Below the pieces are notes generated by a model. It was not told the origin of the DNA, ran no database searches, and saw nothing but the letters and a program-made list of their open reading frames with translations. From Mycobacterium sp. MS1601 (GTDB taxonomy: Bacteria > Actinomycetota > Actinomycetes > Mycobacteriales > Mycobacteriaceae), in the NCBI RefSeq assembly GCF_001984215.1, contig NZ_CP019420.1:1488001-1552000 (forward strand): a DNA stretch of 64,000 bases, given 5' to 3'. Numbering within the stretch: position 1 is the first letter of the stretch; each line of letters starts with the position of its first letter. Positions 11,071-26,839 of the stretch are shown piece after piece. The translations under genes and the position numbers were made by a program.

Positions 11071-11076
11071 AACGCC

Positions 11077-11322: not shown

Positions 11323-11505
11323 CTTGACGACCTTTGGTTGCATCCGATGATGATAGGCCCTAGATCGAGAACCCTGGAGAACCAGCCCGCGCGCAGCATG
11401 AACCGGCCTCGGCGACACACTGTTCGGGGGCATGCCGGTACCGCTAATCACCTCACTGGCATAGAGTGACATTTCGACCTAACACTCTGCAGGAGGAGCT
11501 GAACG

Positions 11506-11883
11506 ATGTTGCTGACCACCCGTCGAGTAGTTGTTGGTACCGCGGGGAGCTTGGCCGCCGGCATCGTCATCCTCACCTCTGCACAGTCAGCCGTCGCCGA
11601 GCCGGCAGCACCGCCGGCAAACTGCAGTGCTGCCGATCTCGCAGGTGTGGCTGCCGGCGTATCGACAGCAACGTCGGCGTACCTGTTCGCTCATCCTCCG
11701 GTCAACGACTTCTTCACCAGCCTGCAGCCGCTCGGCAATGATCAGAAGCAAGCCAAGGTGGACGAGTACTTCATCGCCAATCCCCAGGTCGCCGGCGAGC
11801 TCAAGGCGATTCGTAAGCCACTACAGGATGTCAAGATTCGGTGCGGCGACACCAATGGCGACGGCGTCGTCGACATTCTCTGA
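11506..11883 (+). CDS. hemophore-related secreted protein (Rv0203/Rv1174c-like)
   Basis: A 125 aa exported protein. The signal peptide includes GSLAAGIVILTSAQSAVA, cleaved before EPAAPP. The mature part has the mycobacterial hemophore-like layout: NCSAADLAGVAAGVS, a helical region with FFTSLQPL, and a second cysteine near the end (KIRCGDTNGDG), so one disulfide. Members of this family bind heme or are secreted relatives of unknown role. GGAGGAG precedes the ATG. No iron box (IdeR) is evident upstream. Confidence 0.75.
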   Translation: MLLTTRRVVVGTAGSLAAGIVILTSAQSAVAEPAAPPANCSAADLAGVAAGVSTATSAYLFAHPPVNDFFTSLQPLGNDQKQAKVDEYFIANPQVAGELKAIRKPLQDVKIRCGDTNGDGVVDIL

Positions 11884-12112
11884 TCCTGGCGTCGCCCGGT
11901 CCGCAGCCCTTGGCTTCGGGCCGTTGGAGTGGCAACGCAACTGTCGGCTTTGTGCAGGTAAGACAACGGGCGCTCCTGGCTCCTGACGGATGCCGCTGAT
12001 TTGCCAGATGTGCTGGACGGCGACTGTGCGGCAGGCCCAAACCGAATGCGGATGCTGCTGCAGAAGTTTGTTGCCATCGCCACTTATCCACAGTCAAGCT
12101 ACGGTGAAGCGC

Positions 12113-13900
12113 GTGGGAAACAACGGCACTGCAAATTTGGGGACCTCCACCGAAGGCGCTTCCACTCCCGCACCAAGCCAACAATCCAGCGAACGCATCC
12201 GGCTGGGTGAGTGGGCAGGCGGCATCGCCGACGAGCCCGCCCACCTCCCGTCGATTCGCATCGGGCGACGCTGGATCAGTTCTGTGTGGCTTGTGCCGCT
12301 GGCACTCGTCGGGTTGATCGTGGGTGTTGCCGTTGCCCAGCATCTGCGACAGTTCGGCTGGATGCAGGACTTCATCCTGCGCTACCCCGGGACAACGGCC
12401 ACCAGAGGCGCCATCGATCCCGGCATCCCGGCCTGGCTGCGGTGGAGCCACCTGTTCAACATCGTGTTCATGATGTTCATCATCCGGGCGGGTCTGCAGA
12501 TCCTGGCTGATCACCCACGCCTGTACCTCAATTCGGGCAGCACCCCCGGCACCGCCTGGTTGCGGTTGCGCGGACCCGTGCCAGCAGATCGGCTGAATCC
12601 GACCGAGCCGGCCCGCGTGTGGACCGCCAAAGACGACTCGGTGTCACTGCCCAAATGGATCGGCATACCCGGGGTGCGTCATACGATCGGCTTGGCCCGC
12701 TGGTGGCACTTCACTTTCGACGCTCTCTGGCTGCTCAACGGAATCATCTTCTATGTATTGCTTTTCACAACCGGACAGTGGCGACGGATCGTGCCGCAGT
12801 CCTGGGACGTGATCCCGAATGCGATATCGACACTGGTGCAGTACCTGTCGTTGGACTTCCCGGCCAATGACGGTTTCGTGGCTTACAACGGGCTGCAATT
12901 GCTTGCCTACTTCCTGACGGTGTTCGTCTTCGCCCCACTGGCCTTCGTCACGGGCATGCTGCAGGCACCGGCAATCGCCGCACGTTTCGGCTTGGGCAGC
13001 GGCCCAGCCAATCGGCAGATCGCCCGCTCGATTCACTTTCTGGTGCTGGCCTGGATGGTGTTTTTCATCGTGGTTCACACCGTCATGGTCTTCAGTACCG
13101 GACTGATCGGGAACTTGAACCACATCGTGTTCGGTACCAACACCCAGTCATACTGGGCGCTGGCGATCTATCTGGTTGCGATGTCGGCCATCGTGGCGTT
13201 GTGGCTCTTGGCCTCGCCCGTCACCATCCGACACCCACGCGCCGTCCAGAAGATCGGCCAAGCGTCGATAGGCCGGATCAAGGGGCTGATGGAGTGGTTT
13301 CATCCCCGCGCCAACTACTCGGAAAAAGACATCTCGCCCTACTTCTGGGCCAACGGCACGCTTCCGACATCCAAGCTCTATCGTCGACTTCAAAGTAGCA
13401 ACTGGGCTGATTACACACTGCGCGTACATGGATTGGTCGAGCATCCCACCGATTTTCCGTACGCCGAACTGCTGGCAATGGACAAACACGAGCAGATAAC
13501 CCAGCACTACTGCATCCAGGGTTGGTCCGGCATCGCCAAATGGGGCGGCGTCCGAATGGCCGACATCGTGCAGATCGTCAAGCCGTTGCCATCGGCCAAA
13601 TGGGTGGTATTCCGTTCCTTTGCCGATGGTTCGGAACCCGGCGGTGGCCGCTACTACGACTGTCACAAGATCGAACACATGCGCCATCCGATGGCCCTCC
13701 TGGCCTACGAGATGAACGATGCGCCGCTATCCGAAACCCACGGGGCACCGTTGCGGTTGCGCAATGAAGTCGAGCTGGGTTTCAAACAGGTCAAGTGGAT
13801 AGAGTCCATCGAGTTCGTCGAGGGCTTCGAGCACATCGGTAAGGGACACGGCGGATACAACGAGGACCACGAGTATTTCGGCTACCGAATGCCGATCTGA
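12113..13900 (+). CDS. cytochrome b561 / sulfite-oxidase-like molybdopterin oxidoreductase fusion
   Basis: A fusion of a membrane cytochrome b561-type domain and a molybdopterin domain. After a hydrophilic leader there are about five membrane segments (SSVWLVPLALVGLIVGVAVA; histidines in RWSHLFNIVFMMFIIRAG, RWWHFTFDALWLLNG and SIHFLVLAWMVFFIVVHTV as heme ligands). From about residue 400 the sulfite oxidase fold follows, with the Mo-binding cysteine in QHYCIQGWSG and the RNEVELGFKQVKWIESIEF end. No twin-arginine signal, so the Mo domain orientation is unclear. Start uncertain: GTG at 12113 (TACGGT seven bases before, leaderless style) or 12104. Confidence 0.85.
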   Translation: MGNNGTANLGTSTEGASTPAPSQQSSERIRLGEWAGGIADEPAHLPSIRIGRRWISSVWLVPLALVGLIVGVAVAQHLRQFGWMQDFILRYPGTTATRGAIDPGIPAWLRWSHLFNIVFMMFIIRAGLQILADHPRLYLNSGSTPGTAWLRLRGPVPADRLNPTEPARVWTAKDDSVSLPKWIGIPGVRHTIGLARWWHFTFDALWLLNGIIFYVLLFTTGQWRRIVPQSWDVIPNAISTLVQYLSLDFPANDGFVAYNGLQLLAYFLTVFVFAPLAFVTGMLQAPAIAARFGLGSGPANRQIARSIHFLVLAWMVFFIVVHTVMVFSTGLIGNLNHIVFGTNTQSYWALAIYLVAMSAIVALWLLASPVTIRHPRAVQKIGQASIGRIKGLMEWFHPRANYSEKDISPYFWANGTLPTSKLYRRLQSSNWADYTLRVHGLVEHPTDFPYAELLAMDKHEQITQHYCIQGWSGIAKWGGVRMADIVQIVKPLPSAKWVVFRSFADGSEPGGGRYYDCHKIEHMRHPMALLAYEMNDAPLSETHGAPLRLRNEVELGFKQVKWIESIEFVEGFEHIGKGHGGYNEDHEYFGYRMPI

Positions 13901-13939
13901 CTCCGCAAGGGCCCGCCGCTGAAGTCGCCGGCCACCATC

Positions 13940-15103
13940 ATGGGGATCACAAAGACAGGGAGTGTCAGAGTTTTGGGTGTGCGAAGCCGCGTATTGGCCG
14001 CGATCGTGTTCTGGCTTGTTCTCGTTTCCGGGACACCGCCGGCCAGCGCAGAACCCGCGCTCGACAGCGATCCACAAACCAAAACCATCGCCGTACACAC
14101 CCTGGAACCGTTTGTGATGAAGAACAGCAGCGGTCAGCTGACCGGCTTCAGTATCGATCTGTGGAACGAGGTCGCGCTGCGGCTCGGTTGGACCACCGAG
14201 TTTGTCGAAACCGCCAATGTCGGAGAGCAGTTGGCAGCCATATCCGATGGGCGCGCCGATGTTGCGGTGGGCGCGATCTCGTTGACCTCCGAACGAGAGC
14301 GATCTTTCGATTTCTCGCAACCGACTCTTGATGCCGGACTTCAGATCATCGTGCCGGTGCATGACACCCGACCGTCGGTCCCCGGCCTCGGTGGCTACCT
14401 CGACCTACTGCTGTCCTGGACGATGCTCGTGTGGCTCAGTGCCGCTGTAGTCGTCAGCATCGTGCCGACTCATGTCTTTTGGCTGATCGAGCGGCGCAGC
14501 AAGAATCCGGTGGTCTCACGATCGTATTTCCCCGGTATCTTCCAATCTTTCGGCTGGGGTATCGGATCGCTGGTTGGACGTCAAAGCACGTCAGCAACAA
14601 GGACTTTCACCAAGGCTCTGGCGATACTATGGGGCTTCGCCGGCATCGTATTCGTCTCGTTCTACACCGCGAACCTCAGCGCCACGCTGACCGTCACCAA
14701 GTTGGACGCAAAGATCACCGGCCCGGCCGACCTGTATGAAAAGTCCGTCGCAACCGTCCGAGACACCACTGCGGCCGCCTACCTACACAACATGGGCATC
14801 GAGGCCACCCAAACCGACACCATCGAAGACGCCTATCACCTGCTTCGCGAAGAGGGTTATGACGCAGTGGTGTTCGACGCGCCGGTACTGCGTTACTACG
14901 TCGCACATCGAGGTGAGGGGGTGGCGGTCATGGCCGGACCGGTCTTCCAGGACGAGAACCAGGGCTTCGTCTTCAACATCAACAGCCCGCTGCGTAAGCC
15001 GATAAATCAGGCGCTGTTCCAAATGCGAGAAGACGGAACATACAACATGATAAAAGAGAAGTGGTTCGGAGACGATGTGGCGACCGCAGGTGACGCTGGC
15101 TGA
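13940..15103 (+). CDS. ionotropic glutamate receptor-like ligand-gated channel
   Basis: A 387 aa protein whose domain order is that of prokaryotic glutamate receptors: signal peptide (ending PPASA), ligand domain half S1 (KTIAVHTLEPFVMKNSSGQ, then LTSERERSFDFSQPT with the carboxylate-binding Arg), TM1 (about 152-178), re-entrant pore helix (GIFQSFGWGIGSLVG), TM2 ending in SFYTANLSATLTV, then half S2 (to about residue 378, with YDAVVFDAPVLRYYV). SFYTANLSATL closely resembles the SYTANLAAF gate of animal receptors. The pore lacks the TVGYG potassium filter of GluR0. Ion and ligand are unknown; amino acids are likely. Confidence 0.82.
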   Translation: MGITKTGSVRVLGVRSRVLAAIVFWLVLVSGTPPASAEPALDSDPQTKTIAVHTLEPFVMKNSSGQLTGFSIDLWNEVALRLGWTTEFVETANVGEQLAAISDGRADVAVGAISLTSERERSFDFSQPTLDAGLQIIVPVHDTRPSVPGLGGYLDLLLSWTMLVWLSAAVVVSIVPTHVFWLIERRSKNPVVSRSYFPGIFQSFGWGIGSLVGRQSTSATRTFTKALAILWGFAGIVFVSFYTANLSATLTVTKLDAKITGPADLYEKSVATVRDTTAAAYLHNMGIEATQTDTIEDAYHLLREEGYDAVVFDAPVLRYYVAHRGEGVAVMAGPVFQDENQGFVFNINSPLRKPINQALFQMREDGTYNMIKEKWFGDDVATAGDAG

Positions 15104-15588: not shown

Positions 15589-15950
15589 TCAGACTCGGTG
15601 CGCCACCGCCAGCGGCTCGGACACCTTGTCGGTCGAGATCAGACCACGCTTAGGCAGTTCCGGGAACAGCAGTTCGGCGATGTCGGTGAAGGTGTGCGGA
15701 CGGACCGCATGGAAGACGTTCACGCCGGCGATGCCGGCGTCGCGCCATTCCTCCAGTTTGTCGGCCACCTGCTCCGGGGTGCCCACGATTCGGCTGCTGC
15801 GTTCCAAGGCGCGGCCCGGGTCGGCGACCGTGGGGTCATCGGTGCCCGCGGACTCACCCTGTGCCCGAGCGCGAGTTTCTTGGATCAGACTCCGCGCCCA
15901 CGCGGGTTCGGGGCTCGAGATGCACCCCGGGCCACCATGGGAGCGTGAGC
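15589..15950 (-). pseudogene. 3' remnant of a luciferase-like (NtaA-type) monooxygenase gene
   Basis: The last 75 or so codons read RIVGTPEQVADKLEEW...FPELPKRGLISTDKV, which is the C-terminal end of the nitrilotriacetate monooxygenase A / SnaA branch of luciferase-like proteins (usually about 440 aa). The rest of the gene is missing: the HMG-CoA lyase stop lies at 15972. No start codon with a binding site serves this piece. The 5' limit given is approximate. It probably marks a deletion at the end of the operon. Confidence 0.6.
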
Positions 15951-15971
15951 ACGCACCGTCGGCAGTTGCAA

Positions 15972-16877
15972 TCAGCGTGGTTGCAGCGCCGCTGCCACCC
16001 GCGACTGGGTGGGCTTGCCCAAGGCCCGGGTCATCGCGGCCCCCGCGTCGACGACAGCTTCGAGGTTCACACCCGTCTCGATGCCGAGTCCGGTCAGCAT
16101 CCACAGCAGATCCTCGGTGGCCAGGTTTCCCGTGGCCGAGCCGGCAAAAGGGCAGCCGCCGATGCCGCCCGCGGAGGCATCGAACGTGCTGACTCCGGCC
16201 CGCAGTCCGGCGTGCACATTGGCCAGCGCCTGGCCATAGGTGTCGTGAAAGTGCAGCGCCAACCGGCTGACATCGGCGTGCGCTGCGACCAGTGCCGCGA
16301 CATGTCCGGCGGTGCCGACTCCGATGGTGTCGCCCAGCGACACCTCGTAACACCCGGCGTCGAACAGCTCCTGAGACACCGCCGCGACGGCCGACGGTGC
16401 CACAGCCCCTTCCCACGGGTCGCCGAAGCACATCGACACGTAGCCACGCACGGTCAGACCGTTCTCCAGCGCAGCCACGGTGACAGATTGTGCCGCCTCG
16501 ATGGCCGCCGAACGTGTGCTGTTGAGATTGCGCTTGGCGAAAGACTCTGTGGCACTGACAAACACCGCGACCGATCGAGCCCCCGACTCCAGGGCTCGGT
16601 CCAGGCCGCGGCGGTTCGGCACCAGCACCGGATACGGCGTCAGGTCCGGTCCGAGGTTGGCGAGCACCTCGGCGGCATCGGCCAACTGCGGCACCCAGCG
16701 CGGTGAGACGAAGCTCGTCGCCTCCACGATGGGCAGGCCGGCCGCCCGCAGCGCCCGGATGAAGGCGACCTTCTCCCCCGTCGGCACCACGGCTTTCTCG
16801 GCCTGCAGCCCGTCGCGCGCACCCACCTCGTAGACGGTGACGCGGCTGGGTAGTCCCGGCTCCGGGTACACCGTCAT
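15972..16877 (-). CDS. hydroxymethylglutaryl-CoA lyase
   Basis: TIM-barrel lyase that cleaves HMG-CoA to acetyl-CoA and acetoacetate. Family marks are VYEVGARDGLQAEK (catalytic Arg and metal Asp), IVEATSFVSPRWVPQLAD, the SLGDTIGVGT strand, the metal histidines in LALHFHDTYGQALAN, and the signature loop GGIGGCPFAGSATGNLATED with the active-site Cys. About 301 aa, normal. The ATG at 16877 overlaps the TctA-like stop as ATGA. Close homologues act on citramalyl-CoA or other 3-hydroxy-acyl-CoAs, so substrate is not certain. Confidence 0.9.
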   Translation of the reverse strand: MTVYPEPGLPSRVTVYEVGARDGLQAEKAVVPTGEKVAFIRALRAAGLPIVEATSFVSPRWVPQLADAAEVLANLGPDLTPYPVLVPNRRGLDRALESGARSVAVFVSATESFAKRNLNSTRSAAIEAAQSVTVAALENGLTVRGYVSMCFGDPWEGAVAPSAVAAVSQELFDAGCYEVSLGDTIGVGTAGHVAALVAAHADVSRLALHFHDTYGQALANVHAGLRAGVSTFDASAGGIGGCPFAGSATGNLATEDLLWMLTGLGIETGVNLEAVVDAGAAMTRALGKPTQSRVAAALQPR

Positions 16878-18256
16878 CCGAGCAGCACCGGCACCGACAG
16901 CACGGAGACGTAGTACGCCATGCACTGCACGCCGACGTGCATGCCGATCACCTTGTTCATGATTCCGCCCACCAGGCCGACGGTCAGCATGACGATGACA
17001 CCGTAGATCCCGCCCTCGTACATGGCGACGACGAGCACCAAACCGGCGAACGCCCCTATGACGGCCTCATGGGACAACCGTCGAGCCACGAACAGCGCCG
17101 CCTGGCGGGCGTAACGCACCACCAGGGGGTAGGCCACCAGACCGGCCAGCAGTACACCGATGAGACTGAAGATGAGGAATTGCGGCGCGGTGAGCATGGT
17201 GTGCAGGTTGTTCATCTCCTGTCCCTGTCCACCGACGGTGAACACCGGCGGCGCGTTGAACAGCGGTGCGGCGGCGCCGGCGGCGATGGGGCTCAGCGGC
17301 AACCCGATGGCCACCAGCGGGATCAGCGTCTCGGCCAGATAGGTGGAGTCGGTGACACCGTTGCGCACCGAGATCACCCTGGTCAGGCGCTGGTAGGCGT
17401 GTTTGACCCTGGCACCCACGATGTCACCCACCAGGATCGCCATGGCCAGCGGGCTCACCACGAAGGTGAGGCTGGTGGCGGTGGCCGCCACCGCGGTGTC
17501 CCGAGTCTCCTTGCGGTTCAACACCGTCAGCGGGTTCGGCATCCGCCTGCCACCCGACTCGGCCATCTCCGGCGCCAGCCAGAACGTCGGCCGTTTGTCA
17601 CGGACCAGCGAGCGGCGAGTCAGCGGTGACGACAGCCCCACCAGGTCGATGATCATCGGACCGATCGCCAGGCCGACGAAAAAGCTGATGGCCAAGGTCT
17701 TTCCGGTCTGCTCGGCCACAAAGGTGTTCAGACCCGTGATCATGGCCGTCAGCGGCACCAACGCCAGCACCGACGCCCAACGCCCCTTGGACAGATAGGC
17801 GATGACGACGGCGATGACGGGGAACAGGTACGGCACCACGGCGCGCAAGTCGTCGGCCACCGTGGCCAGCAGGCTGGCCGCCCCCACCGCCACGGGTACA
17901 GCGATCAGCGCCGCGATCAGGGCCGCGGAGATCATCTTGCGCAAGGCGATGTGTGGGACACCCAGGCGGCGAAGGTAATTGGCCTCTTCCATCAAGGCGA
18001 TGGCCATGGTGTCGCCCGGGATGCCGAGCAGTGTCGTCGGCACGGCGTGGGTCATGTGTTTGGCGGCGGCGCCGGCGATGAAGAACGCCAGCACGCCGGC
18101 GGGCGGAACACCCAACAGCACCACCGCCAATGTCAGCGGCGCCAGGGTGGCCGTCTCGTCGGTACCCGAGACCAAACCGAGCAGCGAGAAGATGACGGCC
18201 CCGGCCAAGCCGCCGAGCAACGCGGCCATCAGGCCGTCGAAGATCTCGAGTGTCAT
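16874..18256 (-). CDS. TctA-like permease of the tripartite tricarboxylate transporter family
   Basis: A 460 aa integral membrane protein with about 11-12 segments. The duplicated TctA architecture shows in two re-entrant regions: GLVSGTDETATLAPLTLAVV with PTTLLGIPGDTMAIALMEE, and later GVTDSTYLAETLIPLVAIGLP. TctA takes up citrate or other di- and tricarboxylates using a TctC binding protein and TctB; neither is encoded nearby. It overlaps the lyase gene and the 2-TM gene, so it is co-translated with both. The assignment is to a divergent branch. Confidence 0.72.
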   Translation of the reverse strand: MTLEIFDGLMAALLGGLAGAVIFSLLGLVSGTDETATLAPLTLAVVLLGVPPAGVLAFFIAGAAAKHMTHAVPTTLLGIPGDTMAIALMEEANYLRRLGVPHIALRKMISAALIAALIAVPVAVGAASLLATVADDLRAVVPYLFPVIAVVIAYLSKGRWASVLALVPLTAMITGLNTFVAEQTGKTLAISFFVGLAIGPMIIDLVGLSSPLTRRSLVRDKRPTFWLAPEMAESGGRRMPNPLTVLNRKETRDTAVAATATSLTFVVSPLAMAILVGDIVGARVKHAYQRLTRVISVRNGVTDSTYLAETLIPLVAIGLPLSPIAAGAAAPLFNAPPVFTVGGQGQEMNNLHTMLTAPQFLIFSLIGVLLAGLVAYPLVVRYARQAALFVARRLSHEAVIGAFAGLVLVVAMYEGGIYGVIVMLTVGLVGGIMNKVIGMHVGVQCMAYYVSVLSVPVLLG

Positions 18257-18723
18257 GCCTTCTCGTCCACCTTCTGCAGCGCCAGACGGCGTTCGGCCTC
18301 GGCGAACACGTCATAGAGCCCGAGCCTGCGCATCTCGCCGCGTTCGGCTTCACTCAGCGAGGACAGGGTCCCCAGCCCCAGCGGCAGCTGCGCCAGGTCC
18401 ATGGCGGCAGCGATCTGCTCTTCGGGATCGAGTTGCCGCTCGGTCACGATGCGCTTGGGTTTGAAGAACTTCGCGGAGATGACCGCGGCCAGCAGACAGG
18501 CGAACAGCCCCGCCAGCATGGCGTAGGTGCGGGCCAGGTCCTGGTTTTCCATGGTGGTGGAGAACAGGGCGCGGGCGCCGAGGAACGACGGCACCGCCAG
18601 CACCACGCTGAGGGCGACGGCGCTCTTGACGTGGCGTTCATCCACGGTGTCACCCCAGACCTCGACCAGCCGGGAGTCGTCGATGGAGCCCTCGGACCGC
18701 TCCGTTGTTGCTTTGGTCATCAT
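18253..18723 (-). CDS. 2-TM membrane protein of unknown function, possible transporter partner
   Basis: About 156 aa. Two hydrophobic segments (VALSVVLAVPSFLGARALF and YAMLAGLFACLLAAVISAKFF) sit between a charged N-terminal region and a long charged C-terminal helix (SLSEAERGEMRRLGLYDVFAEAERRLALQ). Starts at one of two consecutive ATGs (18723, 18720) after GAGAG; the upstream frame is not credible because it runs into the dehydrogenase gene. The stop overlaps the TctA-like start. It has the genetic position of a TctB but fewer membrane segments; any partnership is inference. Confidence 0.75.
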   Translation of the reverse strand: MMTKATTERSEGSIDDSRLVEVWGDTVDERHVKSAVALSVVLAVPSFLGARALFSTTMENQDLARTYAMLAGLFACLLAAVISAKFFKPKRIVTERQLDPEEQIAAAMDLAQLPLGLGTLSSLSEAERGEMRRLGLYDVFAEAERRLALQKVDEKA

Positions 18724-18730
18724 GTTTCTC

Positions 18731-20202
18731 TCAGGCGATGTCGATGAAAAGAGTTCTGCTGCGGGAATATTCGCGGAGTGCCTCGACGCCCTTCTCGCGG
18801 CCGTAGCCGCTGTCGCGGGTGCCGCCGAACGGCAGTTCCACACCCCCGCCGGGGGCGTAGCCGTTGATGTAGGCCTGCCCGACGTCCAGGGTGCGTGCGG
18901 TGCGCAGCGCTCGGTCGACGTCCTGGCACCACACCGCGGCGGTGAGGCCGTAGCGGCTGTTGTGGGCGGCGGCGACGGCCTCGGCGTCCGAGCCCACCGC
19001 GGTGACCGCCAACAGCGGCCCGAAGACCTCTTCGGCGAACAGTTCGGTGTCCTGGTCCACCGAGTCGAACAGCACCGGCGCCACGAAGTAACCGGTGAGG
19101 CCCTCGGCGTCGGCGGCCCGGGCGGCGATCACCGCACCCGCGGCCTGGGCGCGCTCCGAGAAGCCCTGCACCCTCTTGGCCTGCTGCTCCGAAACCACCG
19201 GTCCCACAGTCGGATCGGACAGACCGTGGCCAAGCGTGGCGGCTTCGAAATAGGGCGCCAGGGCCGCGACCAGCTGACGGTGTAACGACTCGTGCACGAT
19301 GACCCGGGTACCTGCCGTGCAGGTTTGGCCGGCATGCAGCAGCAGGGCGCGGGCAATCACCGGGGCGGCCCGGTCGATGTCGGCGCCTTCGAGAACCAGA
19401 TGGGCGGATTTGCCGCCGAGTTCCAGCAGCGACGGCCGACCGCGTGACGCGCATGCCGCGGCGACCGTGCGCCCGGTGGCCACCGACCCGGTGAACGAGA
19501 TGTGCTCGACGTGCGGATGGGCGGTCAGTGCGGACCCCGCCTCTGCTCCGCCGGGCAGCACGTTGAGAACGCCTGCGGGGAAACCGGCCTCGCGGGCCAG
19601 CCGCGCGTAACTCAATGCCACCAGTGGGGCTTCGTCGGCGGGTTTGACAACTGTGGCGTTACCGACCGCCAGTGCGGCGCCGACCGAGCGGGCGGTGATC
19701 TGCGCCGGGTAGTTCCACGGGATCACGTGACCGGTGACACCGTGCGGCTGGTGCTCGACCACCGCCAGCGAATTCCGGCCCAGCGGGATCGAGTCACCGA
19801 GGAAGCCCTCGACGACGGAACCGTAGAAATCGAAATACCTTGCGGCGGCTTTGATGTCAGCGCGGCCCTGGGCCAGGGGTTTGCCGGTGTCGCGGGTCTC
19901 CAGCCGGGCCAGCACGTCGGCGTCGCGGCGCACCAGGTCGGCAAGCCTGCGCAGCAGGGTGCCGCGTTGACCGGGCGCCAGCGCGCCCCACTCGGGGCTG
20001 CCGACCGCGCGGCGGAAACAGCGTCGTCGACCTCTGAGGCGGTCGCGGATCCGACGGTGGCCAGGGTGTCTGCAGTGGCCGGGTCGATGTTGTCCACCCA
20101 GCGGGTGGGCTCGCGGAGTTCACCGCCGATGTCGAGGGCGAACCGCTGCGGCAACGGCGAGTTGTGGTCGTCCAGCGCAGGACGCAGTACGTCGAGTGTC
20201 AT
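18731..20202 (-). pseudogene. aldehyde dehydrogenase, frameshifted (probably one missing base)
   Basis: NAD(P)-dependent ALDH oxidising an aldehyde to the acid. The N-terminus (MTLDVLRPALDDHNSPL to DDAVSAARSAAP) is in one frame, and the rest from ALAPGQRGTLLRRLADLVRR to SRSRTLFIDIA is in another. Restoring the G run at 19994-19997 from four to five joins them through AAPEWGALAPGQ into a normal protein of about 490 aa. The catalytic set is intact: IPWNYP, LELGGKSAHLV, the nucleophile in AGQTCTAG, and ELPFGGTRDSGYGRE. Lies 9 bases after the alcohol dehydrogenase. Same lesion type as in ridA and the ABC exporter. Confidence 0.88.
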
Positions 20203-20211
20203 AGCCTTCCT

Positions 20212-21324
20212 TCAGGATTCACGGCCGGGACGAATGATCGGCTTGATCTCGTCCATCCGTTTCATGGCGGCCATGGCCTCGGCGAGGTTGTCGAGGCCAT
20301 AGGTGTTGCCGAGCATCCGATTCCAGTCGAAGCGGTGCTGGTAGCGATCGAGAAACTGCATAGCGGTGTGGTAGTCGCCGATCTCACCGCTCATCGAGCC
20401 GATCACGGTGATGCCGCGGGTGACGATGGCCGAGACACTGACCTCCTGTGGTGATCCGCCGAGAGTGCCGAGCATGACGTAACGGCCACCGCGGGCCATC
20501 ATCTGCACACCCTCCGTCATCACACCGGGAGCGCCGGCGAGCTCGAAGGCCACCGAAGCGCCGCGACCGGTGATGCGCTGCACCTCGGCGATGCGCTCGG
20601 CCGGATCGGCCGCGGGGTCCACCGCGACGGTATGGGTGGCGCCCCACTCGCGGGCCAGTTCGAGGCGGTCGGCGGGTCCGCCGACCACGACGAGTCGCCG
20701 CGGCTCGTGCAGCGACAGCATGGCGGTGGCGAACAGGCCCAGCGGTCCGGCGCCCTGCACCACCACGGTGTCGTCGCGGTCGATCCTGCCCGCGAGGTCC
20801 AGCGCCTTGACGACGGTGCGCAGTGCGCAGCTGCCCGCCGACGCCCAGGCCGAGTCGACGCCGTCGGGAATGCGGACGCGGCCGGCACCGGGACGGACGA
20901 TCGCGTACTCGGCGAACGTGCCGGTGAAATGCGGGGCGTCGGCGCAACTGGTCAGGTAGGCGATGTAGCGCTTGGCGCACAGCACGGGCCGGCGCAGCAC
21001 CGTGCACTCATGGCAGTGCCCGCACGGCATGTGCGCCCAGACCACGCGGTCACCGACCGTCAGCTGTTGGCCCACGCTGTCCACCTCGGCGCCGTCACCG
21101 ATCTCGATGATGCGCCCGGCCATCTCATGGCCCAGGATCAGCGGCGGGTCCACCGGCAGCGACAGGTTGCCCTGCCAGGCGTGGACGTCGGAGCCGCATA
21201 CGGTGGCGACGTCGATCTCGACCACGAGCCCACCGGGCGCCGCGCCGGGGCGCGGGTACTCACAGATCTCGAAATCGGCCTTGTAGTCGTACATCACGGC
21301 GGCCCGACCCGTCGGTGTCGTCAT
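20212..21324 (-). CDS. zinc-binding alcohol dehydrogenase (MDR family)
   Basis: Medium-chain dehydrogenase, 370 aa. The catalytic zinc ligands lie in VCGSDVHAWQG and GHEMAGRI, the structural zinc cysteines in CGHCHECTVLRRPVLC, and the cofactor site is VVQGAGPLGLFATAML. It would oxidise a primary or secondary alcohol with NAD(P). The start overlaps the CoA-transferase stop (ATGA) and the aldehyde dehydrogenase follows, a natural alcohol to aldehyde to acid series. Substrate unknown. Confidence 0.92.
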   Translation of the reverse strand: MTTPTGRAAVMYDYKADFEICEYPRPGAAPGGLVVEIDVATVCGSDVHAWQGNLSLPVDPPLILGHEMAGRIIEIGDGAEVDSVGQQLTVGDRVVWAHMPCGHCHECTVLRRPVLCAKRYIAYLTSCADAPHFTGTFAEYAIVRPGAGRVRIPDGVDSAWASAGSCALRTVVKALDLAGRIDRDDTVVVQGAGPLGLFATAMLSLHEPRRLVVVGGPADRLELAREWGATHTVAVDPAADPAERIAEVQRITGRGASVAFELAGAPGVMTEGVQMMARGGRYVMLGTLGGSPQEVSVSAIVTRGITVIGSMSGEIGDYHTAMQFLDRYQHRFDWNRMLGNTYGLDNLAEAMAAMKRMDEIKPIIRPGRES

Positions 21325-22496
21325 ACGCCCTCCTTCATCTGGATGCTCTCACCGATCTCGGCCAGCACAGCATCCGTGTGTTCCCCGAGATCCGGCGCCC
21401 GCCCCAACTCACGTGTTCCGATGGGTCCCAGAGGTGACCGTGGGATCAGCAGTCCGTCGTCGTCGGTGATCAGTCCCAGTGCGGCCGACTGCGCGCTGCG
21501 CGCCGCCTCGGCCGGAGTGCGCACCGGTGCCACCAGAACACGGTGCGCGCGTAAGCGTTCCAGCAGCTCAGCCACGGTGAAGCCGCCGACGGCGTCCTGG
21601 ATGGCAGCGTCGACGTCGTCGCGCGCGCTCACCCGGGCCGCGTTGCCACTCCAGTCGGGACGCCCCAGCGTCGCGCCCGCGTCGAGGGCGGTGACCAGCC
21701 GGGTGAACATGGCGTCGTTGGTGGCGCCCAGCACCACGTGGCCGTCGGACGCGGTGAAGGCGCGATACGGGACGATCGAGGGATGGGCGCTGCCCCAGGC
21801 CTTGGTGGCGCCGCCACCGGCGGAGGTACCGGCGATGACGGTGCCCAGCGCGCTGACCGCGGTGGCGTACAGGGAGACGTCCACGCGTCGTCCGCGTCCT
21901 GTGCGACCCCGCTCGATGAGCGCGGCAAGCACAGCGTTGACCAGGGCCGCTCCGGTGGCGAGATCCACCATCGCGACGCCGAAGCGCACCGGTTCGTCGC
22001 CGGGCTGACCGGTGATGCTCATCAGCCCGGATTCGGCTTCGACGATGACCTCGGTGCCGGCGTCCTGCGCCATCGGGCCGGCGATGCCGAAGCCGGTGAT
22101 GGAGCCGTAGATGACCGAGGGGTGCCGGGCCAGTACGGCCTCGGCGCCGATACCGAGCCGTTCGGTGACACCGGGGCGGAAGTTCTCGACGACGACGTCG
22201 GCGGTGCCGATCAGAGCGTCGACAGCGGCCCGCCCTTGCGCGCTGCTCAGGTCGAGGGCGACGCTGCGCTTGCCGCGGTTGACCGCGTGGAAGTAGGCGC
22301 TGGTGTGCTCGACAAACGGCGGGCCCCAGGCGCGGGTCTCGTCGCCGACCTGCGGCATCTCGATCTTGATGACGTCAGCGCCGAGTTCGGCCAACAGCAT
22401 GGTCGCGTAGGGCCCGGCCAGGACGCGGGTGAAGTCGACGACGCGGATTCCCGCCAGCGGCTGGAAGGTAGCCAGTGGTTGGAGGGTCTGAGTCAT
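21321..22496 (-). CDS. class III (CaiB/BaiF) CoA-transferase
   Basis: Transfers CoA from an acyl-CoA donor to a carboxylic acid. The family start LAGIRVVDFTRVLAGPYATM and LAELGADVIKIE are present, as is the catalytic aspartate in AQDAGTEVIVEAESG-type context (family position near VSYATGAL; assigned by similarity). 391 aa from the ATG at 22496 (GGAG upstream), a normal length; the long upstream extension of the frame runs antisense to the LysR gene and is not real. First gene of the operon: it would activate the acid made by the two dehydrogenases for cleavage by the lyase. Confidence 0.9.
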   Translation of the reverse strand: MTQTLQPLATFQPLAGIRVVDFTRVLAGPYATMLLAELGADVIKIEMPQVGDETRAWGPPFVEHTSAYFHAVNRGKRSVALDLSSAQGRAAVDALIGTADVVVENFRPGVTERLGIGAEAVLARHPSVIYGSITGFGIAGPMAQDAGTEVIVEAESGLMSITGQPGDEPVRFGVAMVDLATGAALVNAVLAALIERGRTGRGRRVDVSLYATAVSALGTVIAGTSAGGGATKAWGSAHPSIVPYRAFTASDGHVVLGATNDAMFTRLVTALDAGATLGRPDWSGNAARVSARDDVDAAIQDAVGGFTVAELLERLRAHRVLVAPVRTPAEAARSAQSAALGLITDDDGLLIPRSPLGPIGTRELGRAPDLGEHTDAVLAEIGESIQMKEGV

Positions 22497-22569: not shown

Positions 22570-22583
22570 ACGATTTGCATCGT
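22570..22583. promoter_or_regulatory. candidate LysR operator in the divergent region
   Basis: Perfect inverted repeat ACGAT-TTGC-ATCGT, 31 bases before the LysR start and 74 before the CoA-transferase start. A second, imperfect dyad (GTGGCCGCGGTCAC) is at 22525-22538. Divergent LysR pairs normally bind such sites to activate the operon and repress their own gene. The T-N11-A core is not exact. Confidence 0.4.
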
Positions 22584-22613
22584 TTGTTGCGTCTGACTCA
22601 TGAATAGGAAGTT

Positions 22614-23507
22614 GTGGACCCCGATCTGAGCCTGCGCGACCTCCGACTCATCCTCGAAGTCGCAGCCCGCCGCTCGTTCACCGATGCCGCCCAGGCCGTG
22701 CACATGTCGCAGAGTGCGCTCAGCCGCGCGGTCAACGACGCGGAACGACGGCTCGGGGCCCGGCTCTTCGAACGCACCACCCGGTCGGTGGAACCCACGG
22801 CCGTCGGCGCCGAGTTCATCCGCATCGGGACGTCGATGCTGGCGCAGTACCAACGCGGCCTGCGCGAATTCGCTTTGTTTCGAGACGGATTCGGCGGTGT
22901 GGTGCGGGTGGCAGCGCTGCCGTCGATCGCGGCCACCGTGCTGCCCGCGCTGGTGGCCACCATGAAGACGGACAACCCCGGCATCGTGATCGACATCGTC
23001 GACACCTTGGCGCACGTGGCCACCGAACAACTGCTGGCCGGGCAGGTCGACTACGCCATCACCGTCGACGAAGGCCTGCCCGACGAGGTCGCGTTCACGC
23101 CGTTGACCAAGGACCGGTTCCACGTGGTGTTCCGCGACGACCATGCCTTTCGGGGGCGACGTCAGGTGGCGTGGCGCGAACTGTCCGGCCAGCCGTTCGT
23201 CAGTTTCGGCGAGGACAGCAGCCTGCGGGCGCTGACCGACGACACCTTCCGGCTAGTGGGCATCACCCCCGAGGTGTCGTTCGAGGCGCAGAACATCGCG
23301 GTGATCGCCGGCCTGGTGTCGTCGGGGCTGGGAGTGGCCGCAGCACCGGCGATGGTGCTGCCGTTGATGTCCTTCGCCGGGCTGAGCACGGCCGAACTGG
23401 TGGAGCCGACGGTCGACCGCGACATCGGCCTGGCGTATGTGCCGGGCCGGTCGCTGTCGCCTGCGGCTCAACAGGTTGCGCAGGCACTGTCGTCACAGCT
23501 GCAGTAG
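22614..23507 (+). CDS. LysR family transcriptional regulator
   Basis: A 297 aa regulator with an N-terminal helix-turn-helix (LRDLRLILEVAARRSF, then AQAVHMSQSALSRAVNDAER, then RLFERTTRSVEPTAVG) and a C-terminal effector domain of the periplasmic-binding type (VRVAALPSIAATVLPAL onward). GTG start just after AGGAAG. Divergent from the CoA-transferase operon, which it probably controls in response to a pathway intermediate. Its 3' end overlaps the convergent acyl-CoA synthetase gene by 15 bases. Confidence 0.92.
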   Translation: MDPDLSLRDLRLILEVAARRSFTDAAQAVHMSQSALSRAVNDAERRLGARLFERTTRSVEPTAVGAEFIRIGTSMLAQYQRGLREFALFRDGFGGVVRVAALPSIAATVLPALVATMKTDNPGIVIDIVDTLAHVATEQLLAGQVDYAITVDEGLPDEVAFTPLTKDRFHVVFRDDHAFRGRRQVAWRELSGQPFVSFGEDSSLRALTDDTFRLVGITPEVSFEAQNIAVIAGLVSSGLGVAAAPAMVLPLMSFAGLSTAELVEPTVDRDIGLAYVPGRSLSPAAQQVAQALSSQLQ

Positions 23508-25091
23508 CCGGGTGCTCTCCTGCCGCATCGCCACCTTGCGCACCTTGCCGGTGACGGTCATGGGGAACTCATCGACAACGTGCACGTAGCGGGGAATCTT
23601 GTAGTGCGCCAACTTGTCTGACGCGAACTCTTTCAGCTTCGCCGCGTCGATGGGCTGGCGTCCCGCGCGCATCCGGATCCACGCACAGATCTCCTCGCCG
23701 TACCTGGCGTCGGGAACGCCGATCACCTGTGCATCCTCGATGTCGGGATGGGTGTAGAGGAACTCCTCGATCTCGCGCGGGTAGACGTTCTCACCGCCGC
23801 GGATGATCATGTCCTTGATGCGGCCCACCACGTCGCAGTAGCCGTCCTCACGCATCACCGCAAGGTCGCCCGTGTGCATCCAACCGTCGGAATCGATTGC
23901 CTGGCTTGTCTTCTCCGGATCCTCCCAGTAACCGAGCATCACCGAGTAACCCCTGGTGCAGAACTCGCCCGGCGCGCCGCGCTCCACCACCTCACCGGTG
24001 TCGGGGTCGACGATCTTGATCTCGACATGCGGATGCGCCCGACCGATCGATGACGTCCGGCGCTCGAGATCGTCGTCGATCAGGGTCTGGCACGACACAG
24101 GGGACGTCTCCGTCATGCCGTAGGCGATGGCCACCTCGGACATGTGCATGTCGGCGACGGCACGTTTCATCACTTCGACCGGACACACCGCACCTGCCAT
24201 GATTCCGGTGCGCAACGAGCTCAGGTCCTTGTTCGCGAAATCAGGGTGTCCCAGCATGGCGATGAACATCGTCGGGACACCGTAAACGCCGTTGCACCTC
24301 TCGGTTTCGATCGCATCCAGGGTGGCTCCCGGATCGAATCCCGGGCCGGGAACAACGATGGTGGCGCCGTGACTGGTACAGCCGAGATTTCCCATCACCA
24401 TGCCGAAGCAGTGGTAGAACGGCACGGGAATACAGAGCTTCTCCCCCGGTTGCAGTGCGATCATCTCGGTCACGAAGAAGCCGTTGTTGAGGATGTTGCG
24501 GTGCGAGAGAGTGGCTCCTTTGGGGAAACCCGTTGTTCCCGACGTGTATTGAATGTTGACCGGGTCGCTGTTACGCAGACTGGCTTTCCGCGAGAGGAAT
24601 TCGTCGTCCGAGACGCCGCGTTCACGAAGACGCCGCCAATCCTCGGTTCCGAGGAAGATCACGTCCTGCAGATCTTGGCCCACCTCGGCCACCATCGCCA
24701 CGTAGTCGGAGGATTTGAAGGATGTCGCGGCGATCAGCGTGCGCACTCCGGACTGCTCCAGCACATAAGACAATTCGTGGGTGCGGTAGGCCGGGTTGAT
24801 GTTCACCAGGATGGCCCCGATCTTGGCCGTCGCGTACTGCACCAGCACCCACTCGGCACAGTTCGGTGACCAGATGCCCACCCGATCGCCCTTGGCGACG
24901 CCCAGGGCCATCAGACCACGGGCCACCACGTCGACCTCGGCATCGAGTTCGGCGTAGGTCCATCGCTTTCCGGCGGCCACGTCCACCAACGCCTCGATGT
25001 CCGGGTGAGCAGCCACGGTGTTCTCGAAGTTCGCCCCGATGGTGGTCTCGAGCACCGGGGTGTCGGTGGGTCCGCAGTCGTGAGACTTCAC
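23493..25091 (-). CDS. acyl-CoA synthetase (AMP-binding, FadD type)
   Basis: Activates a fatty acid to its CoA thioester through an acyl-adenylate. 532 aa. The ATP motif is YTSGTTGFPKGATLSHRN, then YGMTETSPVSCQT, DGWMHTGDLAVM, GRIKDMIIRGGENVYPREIE and the catalytic lysine in MTVTGKVRKVAMR. Its start overlaps the stop of the upstream synthetase (ATGA), so the two are coupled. Chain length preference cannot be read. Confidence 0.93.
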   Translation of the reverse strand: MKSHDCGPTDTPVLETTIGANFENTVAAHPDIEALVDVAAGKRWTYAELDAEVDVVARGLMALGVAKGDRVGIWSPNCAEWVLVQYATAKIGAILVNINPAYRTHELSYVLEQSGVRTLIAATSFKSSDYVAMVAEVGQDLQDVIFLGTEDWRRLRERGVSDDEFLSRKASLRNSDPVNIQYTSGTTGFPKGATLSHRNILNNGFFVTEMIALQPGEKLCIPVPFYHCFGMVMGNLGCTSHGATIVVPGPGFDPGATLDAIETERCNGVYGVPTMFIAMLGHPDFANKDLSSLRTGIMAGAVCPVEVMKRAVADMHMSEVAIAYGMTETSPVSCQTLIDDDLERRTSSIGRAHPHVEIKIVDPDTGEVVERGAPGEFCTRGYSVMLGYWEDPEKTSQAIDSDGWMHTGDLAVMREDGYCDVVGRIKDMIIRGGENVYPREIEEFLYTHPDIEDAQVIGVPDARYGEEICAWIRMRAGRQPIDAAKLKEFASDKLAHYKIPRYVHVVDEFPMTVTGKVRKVAMRQESTRLLQL

Positions 25092-26782
25092 AGCAGGTCC
25101 TCGTAGCGATACTCGCCCTCCATCGAGGTGCCGGTACGGTGCGCATCCTCCTCCCGGCGACGAAGTTCAACCCGGCGGATCTTGCCCGAGATCGTCTTGG
25201 GCAGCTCGAAGAACTCGACCCGCCGCACCTTCAGATAGGGAGCCAGGTTGTCGCGAGCGTGCTCCAGGATCGCCTTGGCTGTTTCCTCGCACGCCTCCCA
25301 GCCCGCCGCCAGCGACACGTACGCCTTCGGCACCGCGAGCCTGGTCTCGTCGGGCTGGGGCACCACCGCAGCTTCGACCACCGCCGGGTGCTCGATCAGC
25401 ACACTCTCCAACTCGAACGGAGACACCTTGTAGTCCGAGGACTTGAACACGTCGTCGGTGCGCCCGATGTAGGTGATGTAGCCGTCCGAGTCGCGGCTGG
25501 CCACGTCACCGGTGTGGTAGTAGCCGCCGGCCATCACCATGGCATTACGCTGCTCGTCTCCGAGGTAACCCGTCATCAGGTTCAGCGGGGTGCGGCTCAG
25601 ATCCAGGCAGATCTCCCCCTCGTCGGCCGGGTCCCCGCTGATCGGATCCACCAGCACCACCGGCACACCGGGCATCGGCCGTCCCATCGAGCCGGCCTTC
25701 ACCGGGGCTCCCGGCGTGTTGCCGATCTGCAGAGTGGTCTCGGTCTGGCCGAAGCCGTCGCGGATGGTCAACCCCCATGCCTTCTCCACCTGGGCGATGA
25801 CATCGGGGTTCAGCGGCTCGCCCGCGCCGAGGATCTCGCGCAGCCCACGGGGTTTGTCCCCGAGGTCGGCCTGGATGAGCATCCGCCACACTGTCGGCGG
25901 CCCACAGAAGGTGTTGACCTGCGCGCGATCCAGCTGGTGCAGCAGGGCCGCGGCGTCGAAGCGGGCGTAGTTGTAGACGAAGATCGTGGCCTCGGCGATC
26001 CACGGCGCAAAAAAACAACTCCAGGCGTGTTTGGCCCAGCCCGGTGAACTGATCGCCAAATGCACGTCACCGGGTTTCACCCCGATCCACGCCATCGTGG
26101 TCAGGTGCCCCACGGCGTAGCTGATCTGGGAGTGCTCCACCAGCTTCGGCTTGCTGGTGGTGCCCGAGGTGAAGTAGATGAGCATCGGGTCATCAACCGT
26201 CGTCACCGTGTCGAAGGTCGCCGGCGCGGTGTCGTAGGCCTCGGCGTAGGTGTGCCAGCCGTCGGCCTCCCCGATCGAGATCCCGGTGTAGTCACCGGCC
26301 ACCTTCTCCAATTCCGGGGCGTCGAACTTGGCGGTGTCGGCAGCGTTCGCGATGACAAACCGGGCGCCGCCGCGCTCGATGCGATCGGTCAGGTCAGCCG
26401 GCCCCAACGCTCCCGTGGTGGGCATGATGATGGCGCCCAGCTTCGCGATGGCCAACATGGACTCCCACAGCTCGACCTGGTTGCCGAGCATCAGGATCAC
26501 CCGGTCGCCCTTGCCGACGCCCTTGTCACGCAGCCAGGTCGCCACCTGGTTGGAGCGCTGCGCCATCTCGGCGAAGGTGACCTTCTGTTCGGAGCCGTCG
26601 GCTTCGACGATCCACAGAGCAGGCCGGTCGTTACCGTCGGCGATCACGTCGAACCAGTCGATGGCCCAGTTGAACGCGCCGGTCAGCCGGGGCCACTCGA
26701 AGGTCTCGAGGGCTTTGTCGTAATCGCCGATGACCTCGACGAGATGGTCGCGCGCACTGCGATACAGATCGGTATTGCTCAT
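25088..26782 (-). CDS. acyl-CoA synthetase (AMP-binding, acetyl/medium-chain type)
   Basis: Second AMP-forming synthetase, 564 aa, closer to the acetyl/medium-chain (AcsA/ACSM) branch: YFTSGTTSKPKLVEHSQIS, SSPGWAKHAWSCFFAPW, DGFGQTETTLQIGNTPG, YYHTGDVASRDSDGYI, GRTDDVFKSSDYKVSPFELE and the C-terminal LPKTISGKIRRVELRRRE with the catalytic lysine. The pair of two different synthetases in one unit suggests two substrates in one pathway, or two steps of one. Divergent from a LuxR/GAF regulator 57 bases away. Confidence 0.93.
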   Translation of the reverse strand: MSNTDLYRSARDHLVEVIGDYDKALETFEWPRLTGAFNWAIDWFDVIADGNDRPALWIVEADGSEQKVTFAEMAQRSNQVATWLRDKGVGKGDRVILMLGNQVELWESMLAIAKLGAIIMPTTGALGPADLTDRIERGGARFVIANAADTAKFDAPELEKVAGDYTGISIGEADGWHTYAEAYDTAPATFDTVTTVDDPMLIYFTSGTTSKPKLVEHSQISYAVGHLTTMAWIGVKPGDVHLAISSPGWAKHAWSCFFAPWIAEATIFVYNYARFDAAALLHQLDRAQVNTFCGPPTVWRMLIQADLGDKPRGLREILGAGEPLNPDVIAQVEKAWGLTIRDGFGQTETTLQIGNTPGAPVKAGSMGRPMPGVPVVLVDPISGDPADEGEICLDLSRTPLNLMTGYLGDEQRNAMVMAGGYYHTGDVASRDSDGYITYIGRTDDVFKSSDYKVSPFELESVLIEHPAVVEAAVVPQPDETRLAVPKAYVSLAAGWEACEETAKAILEHARDNLAPYLKVRRVEFFELPKTISGKIRRVELRRREEDAHRTGTSMEGEYRYEDLL

Positions 26783-26839
26783 ACCAACTAGGATCTACAT
26801 CACACTCACCCGACCACTACCCCGAAAGAGGGTGATTTC

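What the first reader, a model, noticed from the sequence alone, without database searches (positions are those of the whole stretch)
15972..22496. Operon that could degrade mevalonate through 3-hydroxy-3-methylglutarate
CoA-transferase, alcohol dehydrogenase, aldehyde dehydrogenase, TctA-like permease and HMG-CoA lyase are tightly coupled (several ATGA overlaps) under a divergent LysR. Mevalonate is a primary alcohol; oxidation by ADH and ALDH would give 3-hydroxy-3-methylglutarate, CoA transfer would give HMG-CoA, and the lyase would split it to acetyl-CoA and acetoacetate. The known bacterial route (Pseudomonas mevalonii) uses a CoA-dependent HMG-CoA reductase instead, so this would be a different path. 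Other 3-hydroxy acids (citramalate type) remain possible.
Basis: partly seen in the sequence, partly recalled or inferred. Interest (0 to 1): 0.72.

Follow-up and report, generated by a model that had tools for sequence, protein, structure and literature searches.

The report
Reductase-free mevalonate breakdown operon
An actinobacterium carries a gene cluster that probably breaks down mevalonate by ordinary oxidation steps instead of the textbook reductase enzyme, and it points to a candidate mevalonate importer, but in this particular genome one of the genes looks broken.

Summary
The ALDH frame is broken in this assembly; it is open in the six other loci. Of 28 loci examined, 21 have HMGR and 7 have CoAT+ADH+ALDH, none both, none neither. 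The operon's lyases group with lyases of HMGR loci, apart from 19 sampled others. The window genome holds one locus of each kind. CoAT+ADH+ALDH thus appear to replace HMGR: mevalonate -> mevaldate -> HMG -> HMG-CoA -> acetyl-CoA + acetoacetate. HMGR was not detected in four of seven operon-bearing genomes. No substrate is shown; HMG alone, (S)-mevalonate or a related alcohol remain possible. Eight searches of an open-access library listed no paper on this route. New variant of a known kind; the permease family is a candidate natural mevalonate importer.

The parts
21321..22496 (-). Family III (CaiB/BaiF) CoA-transferase, 391 aa; proposed to load CoA on HMG
   Evidence: PF02515 E 1.8e-112; best NCBIfam model succinate-glutarate CoA-transferase, 308 bits against a cut-off of 750, so only a relative; closest solved structures 4ed9 (named only CaiB/BaiF family) and succinate--hydroxymethylglutarate CoA-transferase 9br7. 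Asp178, which I take as the nucleophile (mapping recalled), is kept in 121 of 121 aligned sequences, the window plus the best 120 of 4685 hits.
20212..21324 (-). Zinc-dependent medium-chain alcohol dehydrogenase, 370 aa; proposed mevalonate -> mevaldate
   Evidence: PF08240, PF00107; best NCBIfam hits below cut-off. Start overlaps CoAT stop (ATGA).
18731..20202 (-). Aldehyde dehydrogenase, reading frame broken once (about 20.05-19.95 kb); proposed mevaldate -> HMG
   Evidence: Three-frame reading; C-terminal 400-aa piece PF00171 E 2.6e-127. One open frame of 495 aa or more covers the gene in each of the six other loci; full-length relatives up to 92% identical exist.
18253..18723 (-). Small membrane protein, 156 aa, two hydrophobic stretches; permease partner, TctB-like by position only
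   Evidence: No Pfam or NCBIfam match. 12 invariant columns among 13 aligned sequences from both types of locus. Hydropathy estimate.
16874..18256 (-). TctA-type permease, 460 aa; proposed importer of mevalonate and/or HMG
   Evidence: PF01970 67 vs 29 bits. 56-57% identical paralogue in the same genome beside HMGR. Tree of 28.
15972..16877 (-). HMG-CoA lyase, 301 aa (ATG at 16877; the longer frame starts at 16925)
   Evidence: NF004283 over cut-off; aligns along its length with solved HMG-CoA lyases 2ftp and 2cw6; 11 of 11 checked residues kept; trees.
22614..23507 (+). Divergent LysR-type regulator, 297 aa
   Evidence: PF00126 and PF03466; 60-82% identical counterpart beside CoAT in the six other loci.
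22576..22591 (.). Possible LysR binding site, TGCA-N8-TGC(A/G), in the LysR/CoAT gap
   Evidence: Picked by eye in the alignment of seven LysR/CoAT gaps: present in 5 of 7 (window, L090, L119, L120, L121); the left half is not kept in L122 and L123. No chance estimate made.
15589..15972 (-). C-terminal remnant of an NtaA/DmoA-type FMN monooxygenase after the lyase; probably not part of the operon
   Evidence: TIGR03860, profile positions 326-416 of 422, 51.5 bits, below its cut-off; no tblastn match in the loci tabulated.

Best explanation
The operon is a mevalonate (and HMG) breakdown cassette in which CoA-transferase + alcohol dehydrogenase + aldehyde dehydrogenase replace degradative HMG-CoA reductase. 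TctA and its small partner import mevalonate or HMG; ADH oxidises the C5 alcohol to mevaldate; ALDH makes HMG; the CoA-transferase loads CoA from a donor such as succinyl-CoA or acetyl-CoA; the lyase splits HMG-CoA into acetyl-CoA and acetoacetate; LysR senses substrate or an intermediate. Shown here: gene content, conservation, exclusivity with HMGR in the loci examined, kinship of permease and lyase. Inferred: substrates, order of steps, donor, direction of transport. In the window's own copy the ALDH is frame-broken, so this copy may run only from HMG, or need another ALDH, unless the break is an assembly error.
For: 28 of 30 permease places found were examined: 21 with HMGR, 7 (window included) with CoAT+ADH+ALDH at 68-90% identity, none both or neither (window; places). 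Permease tree: the two context types are the two sides of one branch, SH-aLRT 100. Lyase tree: the 7 operon lyases plus one HMGR-locus lyase 100/99, plus a second 100/98, within a 21-row set of operon and HMGR-locus lyases 97/90, apart from 19 sampled other lyases; 15 of those 19 lie in loci with matches to carboxylase subunits that I take as leucine-type (lists). Own HMGR passes TIGR00532 'degradative'. HMGR not detected in 4 of 7 operon-bearing genomes. IspF over cut-off in 7 of 7, mevalonate kinase in 0 of 7, so mevalonate is unlikely to be an own biosynthetic intermediate. CoAT's nearest informatively named solved relative is succinate--hydroxymethylglutarate CoA-transferase. Lyase residues kept.
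Against: No biochemical or growth evidence. Three of seven genomes, the window's among them, also have HMGR: redundancy, or a different substrate. The operon's permeases form a long-stemmed branch (about 0.9 changes per column), which could mean changed specificity. The ADH matches no NCBIfam equivalog over cut-off; its best models (phosphonate-associated ADH, threonine dehydrogenase) give no hint of mevalonate. One operon (L119) carries genes of a sugar-type ABC importer and a cupin between CoAT and ADH, and L120 a similar-looking block, which might suggest a neutral or sugar-like substrate. CoAT has Thr148 where SUGCT has Tyr. Of seven positions peculiar to the operon's lyases, one (246) lies in the loop between Cys242 and Asn251, two of the checked residues. 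The window's ALDH is broken. Loci sampled are few, 24 of 28 actinobacterial.
Confidence: 0.57

Rival explanations
1. The physiological substrate is HMG itself (free 3-hydroxy-3-methylglutarate or its esters): permease + CoAT + lyase do the job, and ADH/ALDH serve a side substrate.
For: CoAT and lyase are enough for HMG. Free HMG is a real bacterial substrate: Snodgrassella alvi consumes it and the first two steps are unannotated in its genome, although there it speeded growth on citrate and was not a sole carbon source (PMC11343714, passages seen). In the window the ALDH is broken while the other genes are open.
Against: ADH and ALDH are neighbours inside the operon in 7 of 7 loci.
Confidence: 0.17
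2. A stereochemical or chemical relative of mevalonate, such as (S)-mevalonate or mevalonolactone: HMG is achiral, so an oxidative route could take either enantiomer, while HMGR takes only (R)-mevalonate.
For: Explains why three of seven genomes keep both systems and the extra importer genes in L119. The enantiomer argument is chemistry from general knowledge.
Against: (S)-mevalonate is not known to me as a natural product; in four of seven genomes only the oxidative operon was found.
Confidence: 0.12
3. A different branched alcohol or acid, the lyase having been recruited from a mevalonate locus for a new 3-hydroxyacyl-CoA.
For: Long stem of the operon's permease branch; sugar-type importer genes and cupin in L119; Tyr-to-Thr difference in CoAT; one lyase position peculiar to the operon (246) lies in the loop between two checked residues.
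Against: All 11 checked HMG-CoA lyase residues kept in 7 of 7.
Confidence: 0.11
4. In this strain the operon is decaying and not used. This is about the window's copy only and does not exclude any of the readings above.
For: ALDH frame broken; monooxygenase remnant directly behind the lyase.
Against: The other genes are open frames of the expected length; one frame break may be an assembly error; does not bear on the six other loci.
Confidence: 0.35

Closest known systems
Degradative HMG-CoA reductase/lyase route of Pseudomonas mevalonii type (mvaA-mvaB; recalled)
   Same: HMG-CoA lyase that groups with the lyases of actinobacterial HMGR loci, same permease pair family, same proposed end products.
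   Different: No HMGR in the operon; CoAT+ADH+ALDH instead; LysR instead of the GAF/PucR-type regulator matched beside HMGR in 17 of 17 actinobacterial HMGR-permease loci. P. mevalonii's own locus was not examined.
SUGCT, succinate--hydroxymethylglutarate CoA-transferase
   Same: Family III CoA-transferase; 9br7 is the best informatively named solved relative.
   Different: Far below the NCBIfam succinate-glutarate equivalog cut-off (308 vs 750 bits); Thr148 in place of Tyr.
Tripartite tricarboxylate transporter (TctABC)
   Same: TctA domain.
   Different: The small partner has no Pfam or NCBIfam match; no binding-protein (TctC) gene in the operon.
Leucine/isovalerate catabolism (liu/MCC type)
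   Same: Ends in HMG-CoA lyase.
   Different: No carboxylase subunits among the operon's proteins; the lyase groups with HMGR-locus lyases.

Membership tests
P. mevalonii-type mevalonate catabolic operon | Degradative HMG-CoA reductase in the operon | tested here: not met
   No HMGR match in the six other operon loci; in the window's genome the only HMGR match is elsewhere. HMGR lies elsewhere in 3 of 7 genomes.
P. mevalonii-type mevalonate catabolic operon | HMG-CoA lyase of the same lineage as in HMGR loci | tested here: met
   Groups with actinobacterial HMGR-locus lyases, 100/98 and 97/90; three alphaproteobacterial HMGR-locus lyases lie further out.
P. mevalonii-type mevalonate catabolic operon | Growth on mevalonate | not testable with these tools
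   No experiment possible.
HMG-CoA lyase | Family model over cut-off | tested here: met
   NF004283 360 vs 246 bits.
HMG-CoA lyase | Catalytic residues (human R41, D42, E72, H233, H235, C266, N275; numbers recalled) | tested here: met
   All kept in 7 of 7 operon lyases.
HMG-CoA lyase | HMG-CoA cleaving activity | not testable with these tools
   Needs an assay.
Family III CoA-transferase | Domain and catalytic Asp | tested here: met
   PF02515; Asp178 in 121 of 121 aligned; mapping to the known nucleophile is recalled.
Succinate-glutarate CoA-transferase equivalog (SUGCT-like) | Equivalog model NF052585 over cut-off | tested here: not met
   308 vs 750 bits.
Tripartite tricarboxylate transporter | TctA subunit | tested here: met
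   PF01970 67 vs 29 bits.
Tripartite tricarboxylate transporter | TctB and periplasmic TctC | tested here: not met
   Small partner has no Pfam or NCBIfam match; no binding-protein gene in the operon. A TctC elsewhere in the genome was not sought.

The most novel reading that the evidence does not exclude
A reductase-free, oxidative route of mevalonate catabolism through free HMG, present as a self-contained cassette in several actinobacterial genera, with a dedicated TctA-type importer: candidate genes for a bacterial mevalonate dehydrogenase, a mevaldate dehydrogenase, an HMG-forming CoA-transferase step and a natural mevalonate importer.
Probability: 0.45. Interest if true: 0.7.

Novelty: new variant of a known kind. 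Interest (0 to 1): 0.56.

Why it matters
If true, mevalonate is degraded by a second chemistry that needs no HMG-CoA reductase and may not be limited to one enantiomer. The permease family shared by both kinds of locus is a directly testable candidate for a natural mevalonate importer; [quoted passage not shown] It also offers candidate genes for bacterial use of free HMG, reported for Snodgrassella alvi with the first two steps unannotated (PMC11343714, passages).

Tried and rejected
Citramalate-type substrate: set aside, because the lyase is over the HMG-CoA lyase cut-off, only weakly matches citramalate/isopropylmalate-type models, and keeps the checked residues.

Odd catalytic residue in CoAT: I first took Glu149 as the position of the catalytic Asp and noted this in the notebook; on rechecking against recalled racemase and formyl-CoA transferase numbering, the nucleophile maps to Asp178, kept in 121 of 121 (correction noted). 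Claim withdrawn; only the Tyr-to-Thr148 difference remains.

Conserved operator: a notebook entry says 7 of 7; on recount the TGCA-N8-TGC(A/G) site is in 5 of 7. A TCAC block further from LysR is in 7 of 7.

CoAT as a route to more operons: a draw of 325 genomes of the class gave one further genome (61% identical, one stop reported inside the match); its locus L136 has the CoAT gene about 7 kb from an HMGR-lyase pair cut by the contig start, with no ADH, ALDH or permease hit. Not counted among the 28, because it has no permease match.

Genomes with the window-type operon were found only by permease searches.

Literature: eight searches (one search was on SUGCT only) listed no paper on this route; older subscription papers on mevalonate-using soil actinomycetes (recalled, not seen) are not in the library and could bear on it.

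Not used: structure prediction and fold search; they would not decide the substrate.
Full report
What is there. On the minus strand, 22496 down to 15972, lie a family III CoA-transferase (CoAT), a zinc ADH, an ALDH, a small gene, a TctA-type permease and an HMG-CoA lyase; a LysR gene diverges at 22614-23507. CoAT/ADH, small gene/TctA and TctA/lyase overlap by ATGA; the remaining gaps are 9 and 7 bases. The small gene (156 aa, two hydrophobic stretches) was not in the finding. The lyase most likely starts at 16877.

The ALDH is broken in this assembly. Its N-terminal part is open from 20202, the rest is open in another frame down to 18731, and the switch lies roughly at 20.05-19.95 kb. The six other operons examined each have one open frame of 495 aa or more over the gene, and full-length relatives up to 92% identical exist in the protein collection.

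The surprise. In the window's own genome the only other match to the permease at E <= 1e-20 (57%) sits in a locus with HMG-CoA reductase, another HMG-CoA lyase and another small partner gene. That reductase passes NCBIfam TIGR00532, 'degradative' (430 vs 260 bits). Plasmids of Lichenicola, Roseomonas and Rhizobium carry the same kind of permease and an annotated hypothetical protein beside a gene annotated as degradative HMGR, with an annotated HMG-CoA lyase; a Burkholderia plasmid stretch without annotation has HMGR, small-partner and permease matches.

Exclusivity. Permease searches (the genome sets overlap, and only the best few candidates per genome are scored) gave 30 distinct places: 24 in genomes and 6 on plasmids. 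I examined 28 (four of the six plasmids); a few have one short flank at a contig end. Test: tblastn matches at E <= 1e-15 within 11 kb of the permease. In 21, HMGR is in the locus; in 7 (window, L090, L119-L123) CoAT, ADH and ALDH are, at 68-90% identity to the window's; none has both or neither (for 27 loci, labels also; the window). One HMGR locus (L127) has a distant CoAT relative (39%); none of the 21 has an ADH or ALDH match. An HMG-CoA lyase is in the locus in 14 of the 21 and 7 of the 7. On the permease tree the two kinds are the two sides of one branch (SH-aLRT 100; quick method). The tree is unrooted, the operon's side has a long stem (about 0.9), and three HMGR-side rows are long, so which kind is older is open.

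The lyase. In a careful tree of 43 lyases (7 operon, 17 HMGR-locus, 19 taken as every fourth of the 76 others), the 7 operon lyases form a set with one HMGR-locus lyase (100/99) and a second (100/98), inside a 21-row set of operon and HMGR-locus lyases (97/90); the 19 others form their own set (90/80). The quick tree of all 100 agrees: 97 and 98 for the 8- and 9-row sets, 93 for the 21-row set, 69 for the others as one group. Three alphaproteobacterial HMGR-locus lyases lie outside both. A tree joining the operon lyases with the others against all HMGR-locus lyases was rejected (p-AU 4e-8), though the outlying rows may drive part of that. 59 of the 80 loci hold matches of at least 45% to the carboxylase subunits beside the lyase of L006, which I take as leucine-type 3-methylcrotonyl-CoA carboxylase from gene order and recall; 21 of 80 do not, some being HMGR loci or short contigs; among the 19 sampled others it is 15. 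All 11 checked residues are kept in the 7 operon lyases (human numbering recalled); of seven positions peculiar to them, one (246) lies in the loop between two checked residues.

Whole genomes. HMGR is found in 3 of 7 operon-bearing genomes (window, G1128, G1273) and not in 4 (G670, G1111, G1227, G1388). In G1128 and G1273 the HMGR locus has no permease of this family nearby (rows L131, L132), and the operon's permease is the only one found in those genomes (four candidates scored each). IspF is over cut-off in 7 of 7 and mevalonate kinase in 0 of 7, although all seven have weaker matches to the kinase model, up to 95 bits against 163. So these bacteria probably make isoprenoids by the MEP route and mevalonate would be a nutrient.

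Distribution. Of 297 sampled genomes of the window's genus (its own included), two carry the operon-type permease and one other only the HMGR type; of 341 in the family of Nocardioides sp. Root190, five carry the operon type and four the HMGR type. A draw from the phylum gave 2 of 396 genomes with any permease of the family, one from the class 9 of 394. In the protein collection, permease, ALDH and CoAT relatives each name Nocardia callitridis and Amycolatopsis endophytica with the same longest-contig lengths, suggesting the operon there too. None of six proteins from the window's surroundings matches near the other six operons, so it behaves as a cassette. I take the window genus to be Mycobacterium in the wide sense from names of close protein relatives (Mycolicibacterium murale, Mycobacterium sp. 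djl-10); this is inference.

CoA-transferase. The best informatively named solved relative is succinate--hydroxymethylglutarate CoA-transferase (9br7), known as SUGCT, which converts glutarate to glutaryl-CoA (PMC7426296, passages). The window protein is far below the equivalog cut-off for succinate-glutarate CoA-transferase, so its acceptor is not settled by family. Asp178, which I take as the nucleophile (recalled mapping), is kept in 121 of 121 aligned sequences, and Thr148 replaces the Tyr of SUGCT in 121 of 121 (window plus the best 120 of 4685 hits).

Mechanism proposed. Import by TctA plus partner; mevalonate -> mevaldate (ADH) -> HMG (ALDH) -> HMG-CoA (CoAT) -> acetyl-CoA + acetoacetate (lyase). 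The gene set would be a functional stand-in for HMGR. Because free HMG is achiral, such a route could in principle accept (S)- as well as (R)-mevalonate; this may explain why some genomes keep both systems, and is speculation. CoA loading before oxidation is not excluded.

Regulation. Of seven LysR/CoAT gaps, five share a TGCA-N8-TGC(A/G) site close to the LysR start; L122 and L123 keep only its right half; a TCAC block is in all seven. The site was picked by eye with no chance estimate. All 17 actinobacterial HMGR-permease loci have instead a match to the GAF/PucR-type regulator.

Against. No experiment; the ADH has no informative family; L119 carries between CoAT and ADH a sugar-type ABC permease, a binding protein and a cupin (Pfam) and an ATPase recognised by eye in its translation, and L120 a similar-looking block judged from ORFs. 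The substrate in those may be broader or different. The window copy may not be functional.

Literature. Eight searches listed no report of this route; I read passages of PMC11343714, PMC4020792, PMC12405511 and PMC7426296, and only listings otherwise. PMC4020792 treats the NAD-type mevaldate reductase (EC 1.1.1.32) as having sequences and the NADPH type (EC 1.1.1.33) as an orphan, so 'first sequence' claims for the ADH would need care.

Verdict. Real, conserved, and better supported than a reader of raw sequence could know: most likely a reductase-free variant of mevalonate/HMG catabolism, with the substrate still to be shown.

Noticed in passing
G000:C1:3958000-3977900 (L084), about 8878-14962: The same genome has a complete HMGR-type mevalonate catabolic locus: GAF/PucR-type regulator, degradative HMGR, HMG-CoA lyase, small membrane protein, TctA-type permease.
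   Followed up: yes
window 18731-20202: ALDH frame broken once in this assembly; open in the six other operons.
   Followed up: partly
window 15589-15972: C-terminal remnant of an NtaA/DmoA-type FMN monooxygenase directly behind the lyase.
   Followed up: no
L119 13521-17800 and L120 13178-17420: L119 has sugar-type ABC importer genes and a cupin inserted between CoAT and ADH; L120 has a similar-looking block judged from ORFs only.
   Followed up: partly
L037, L131, L136: A second, distant family III CoA-transferase (32-33% identical to the window's) lies near HMGR and lyase in these three loci, perhaps another way to use free HMG.
   Followed up: no
L136 8053-9192: A 61% identical CoAT relative about 7 kb from an HMGR-lyase pair, without ADH, ALDH or permease hits nearby.
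   Followed up: partly
window 23493-27667: Behind LysR: two AMP-forming acyl-CoA ligases and a LuxR-type regulator whose best model is RamA of acetate metabolism (192 bits, below the cut-off of 500).
   Followed up: no
G670:C35:57234-58178; G1227:C21:47204-48064; G1388:C14:14837-15697: Full-length matches to the mevalonate kinase model at 86-95 bits, below the cut-off of 163, in three genomes without detected HMGR; identity not examined.
   Followed up: no
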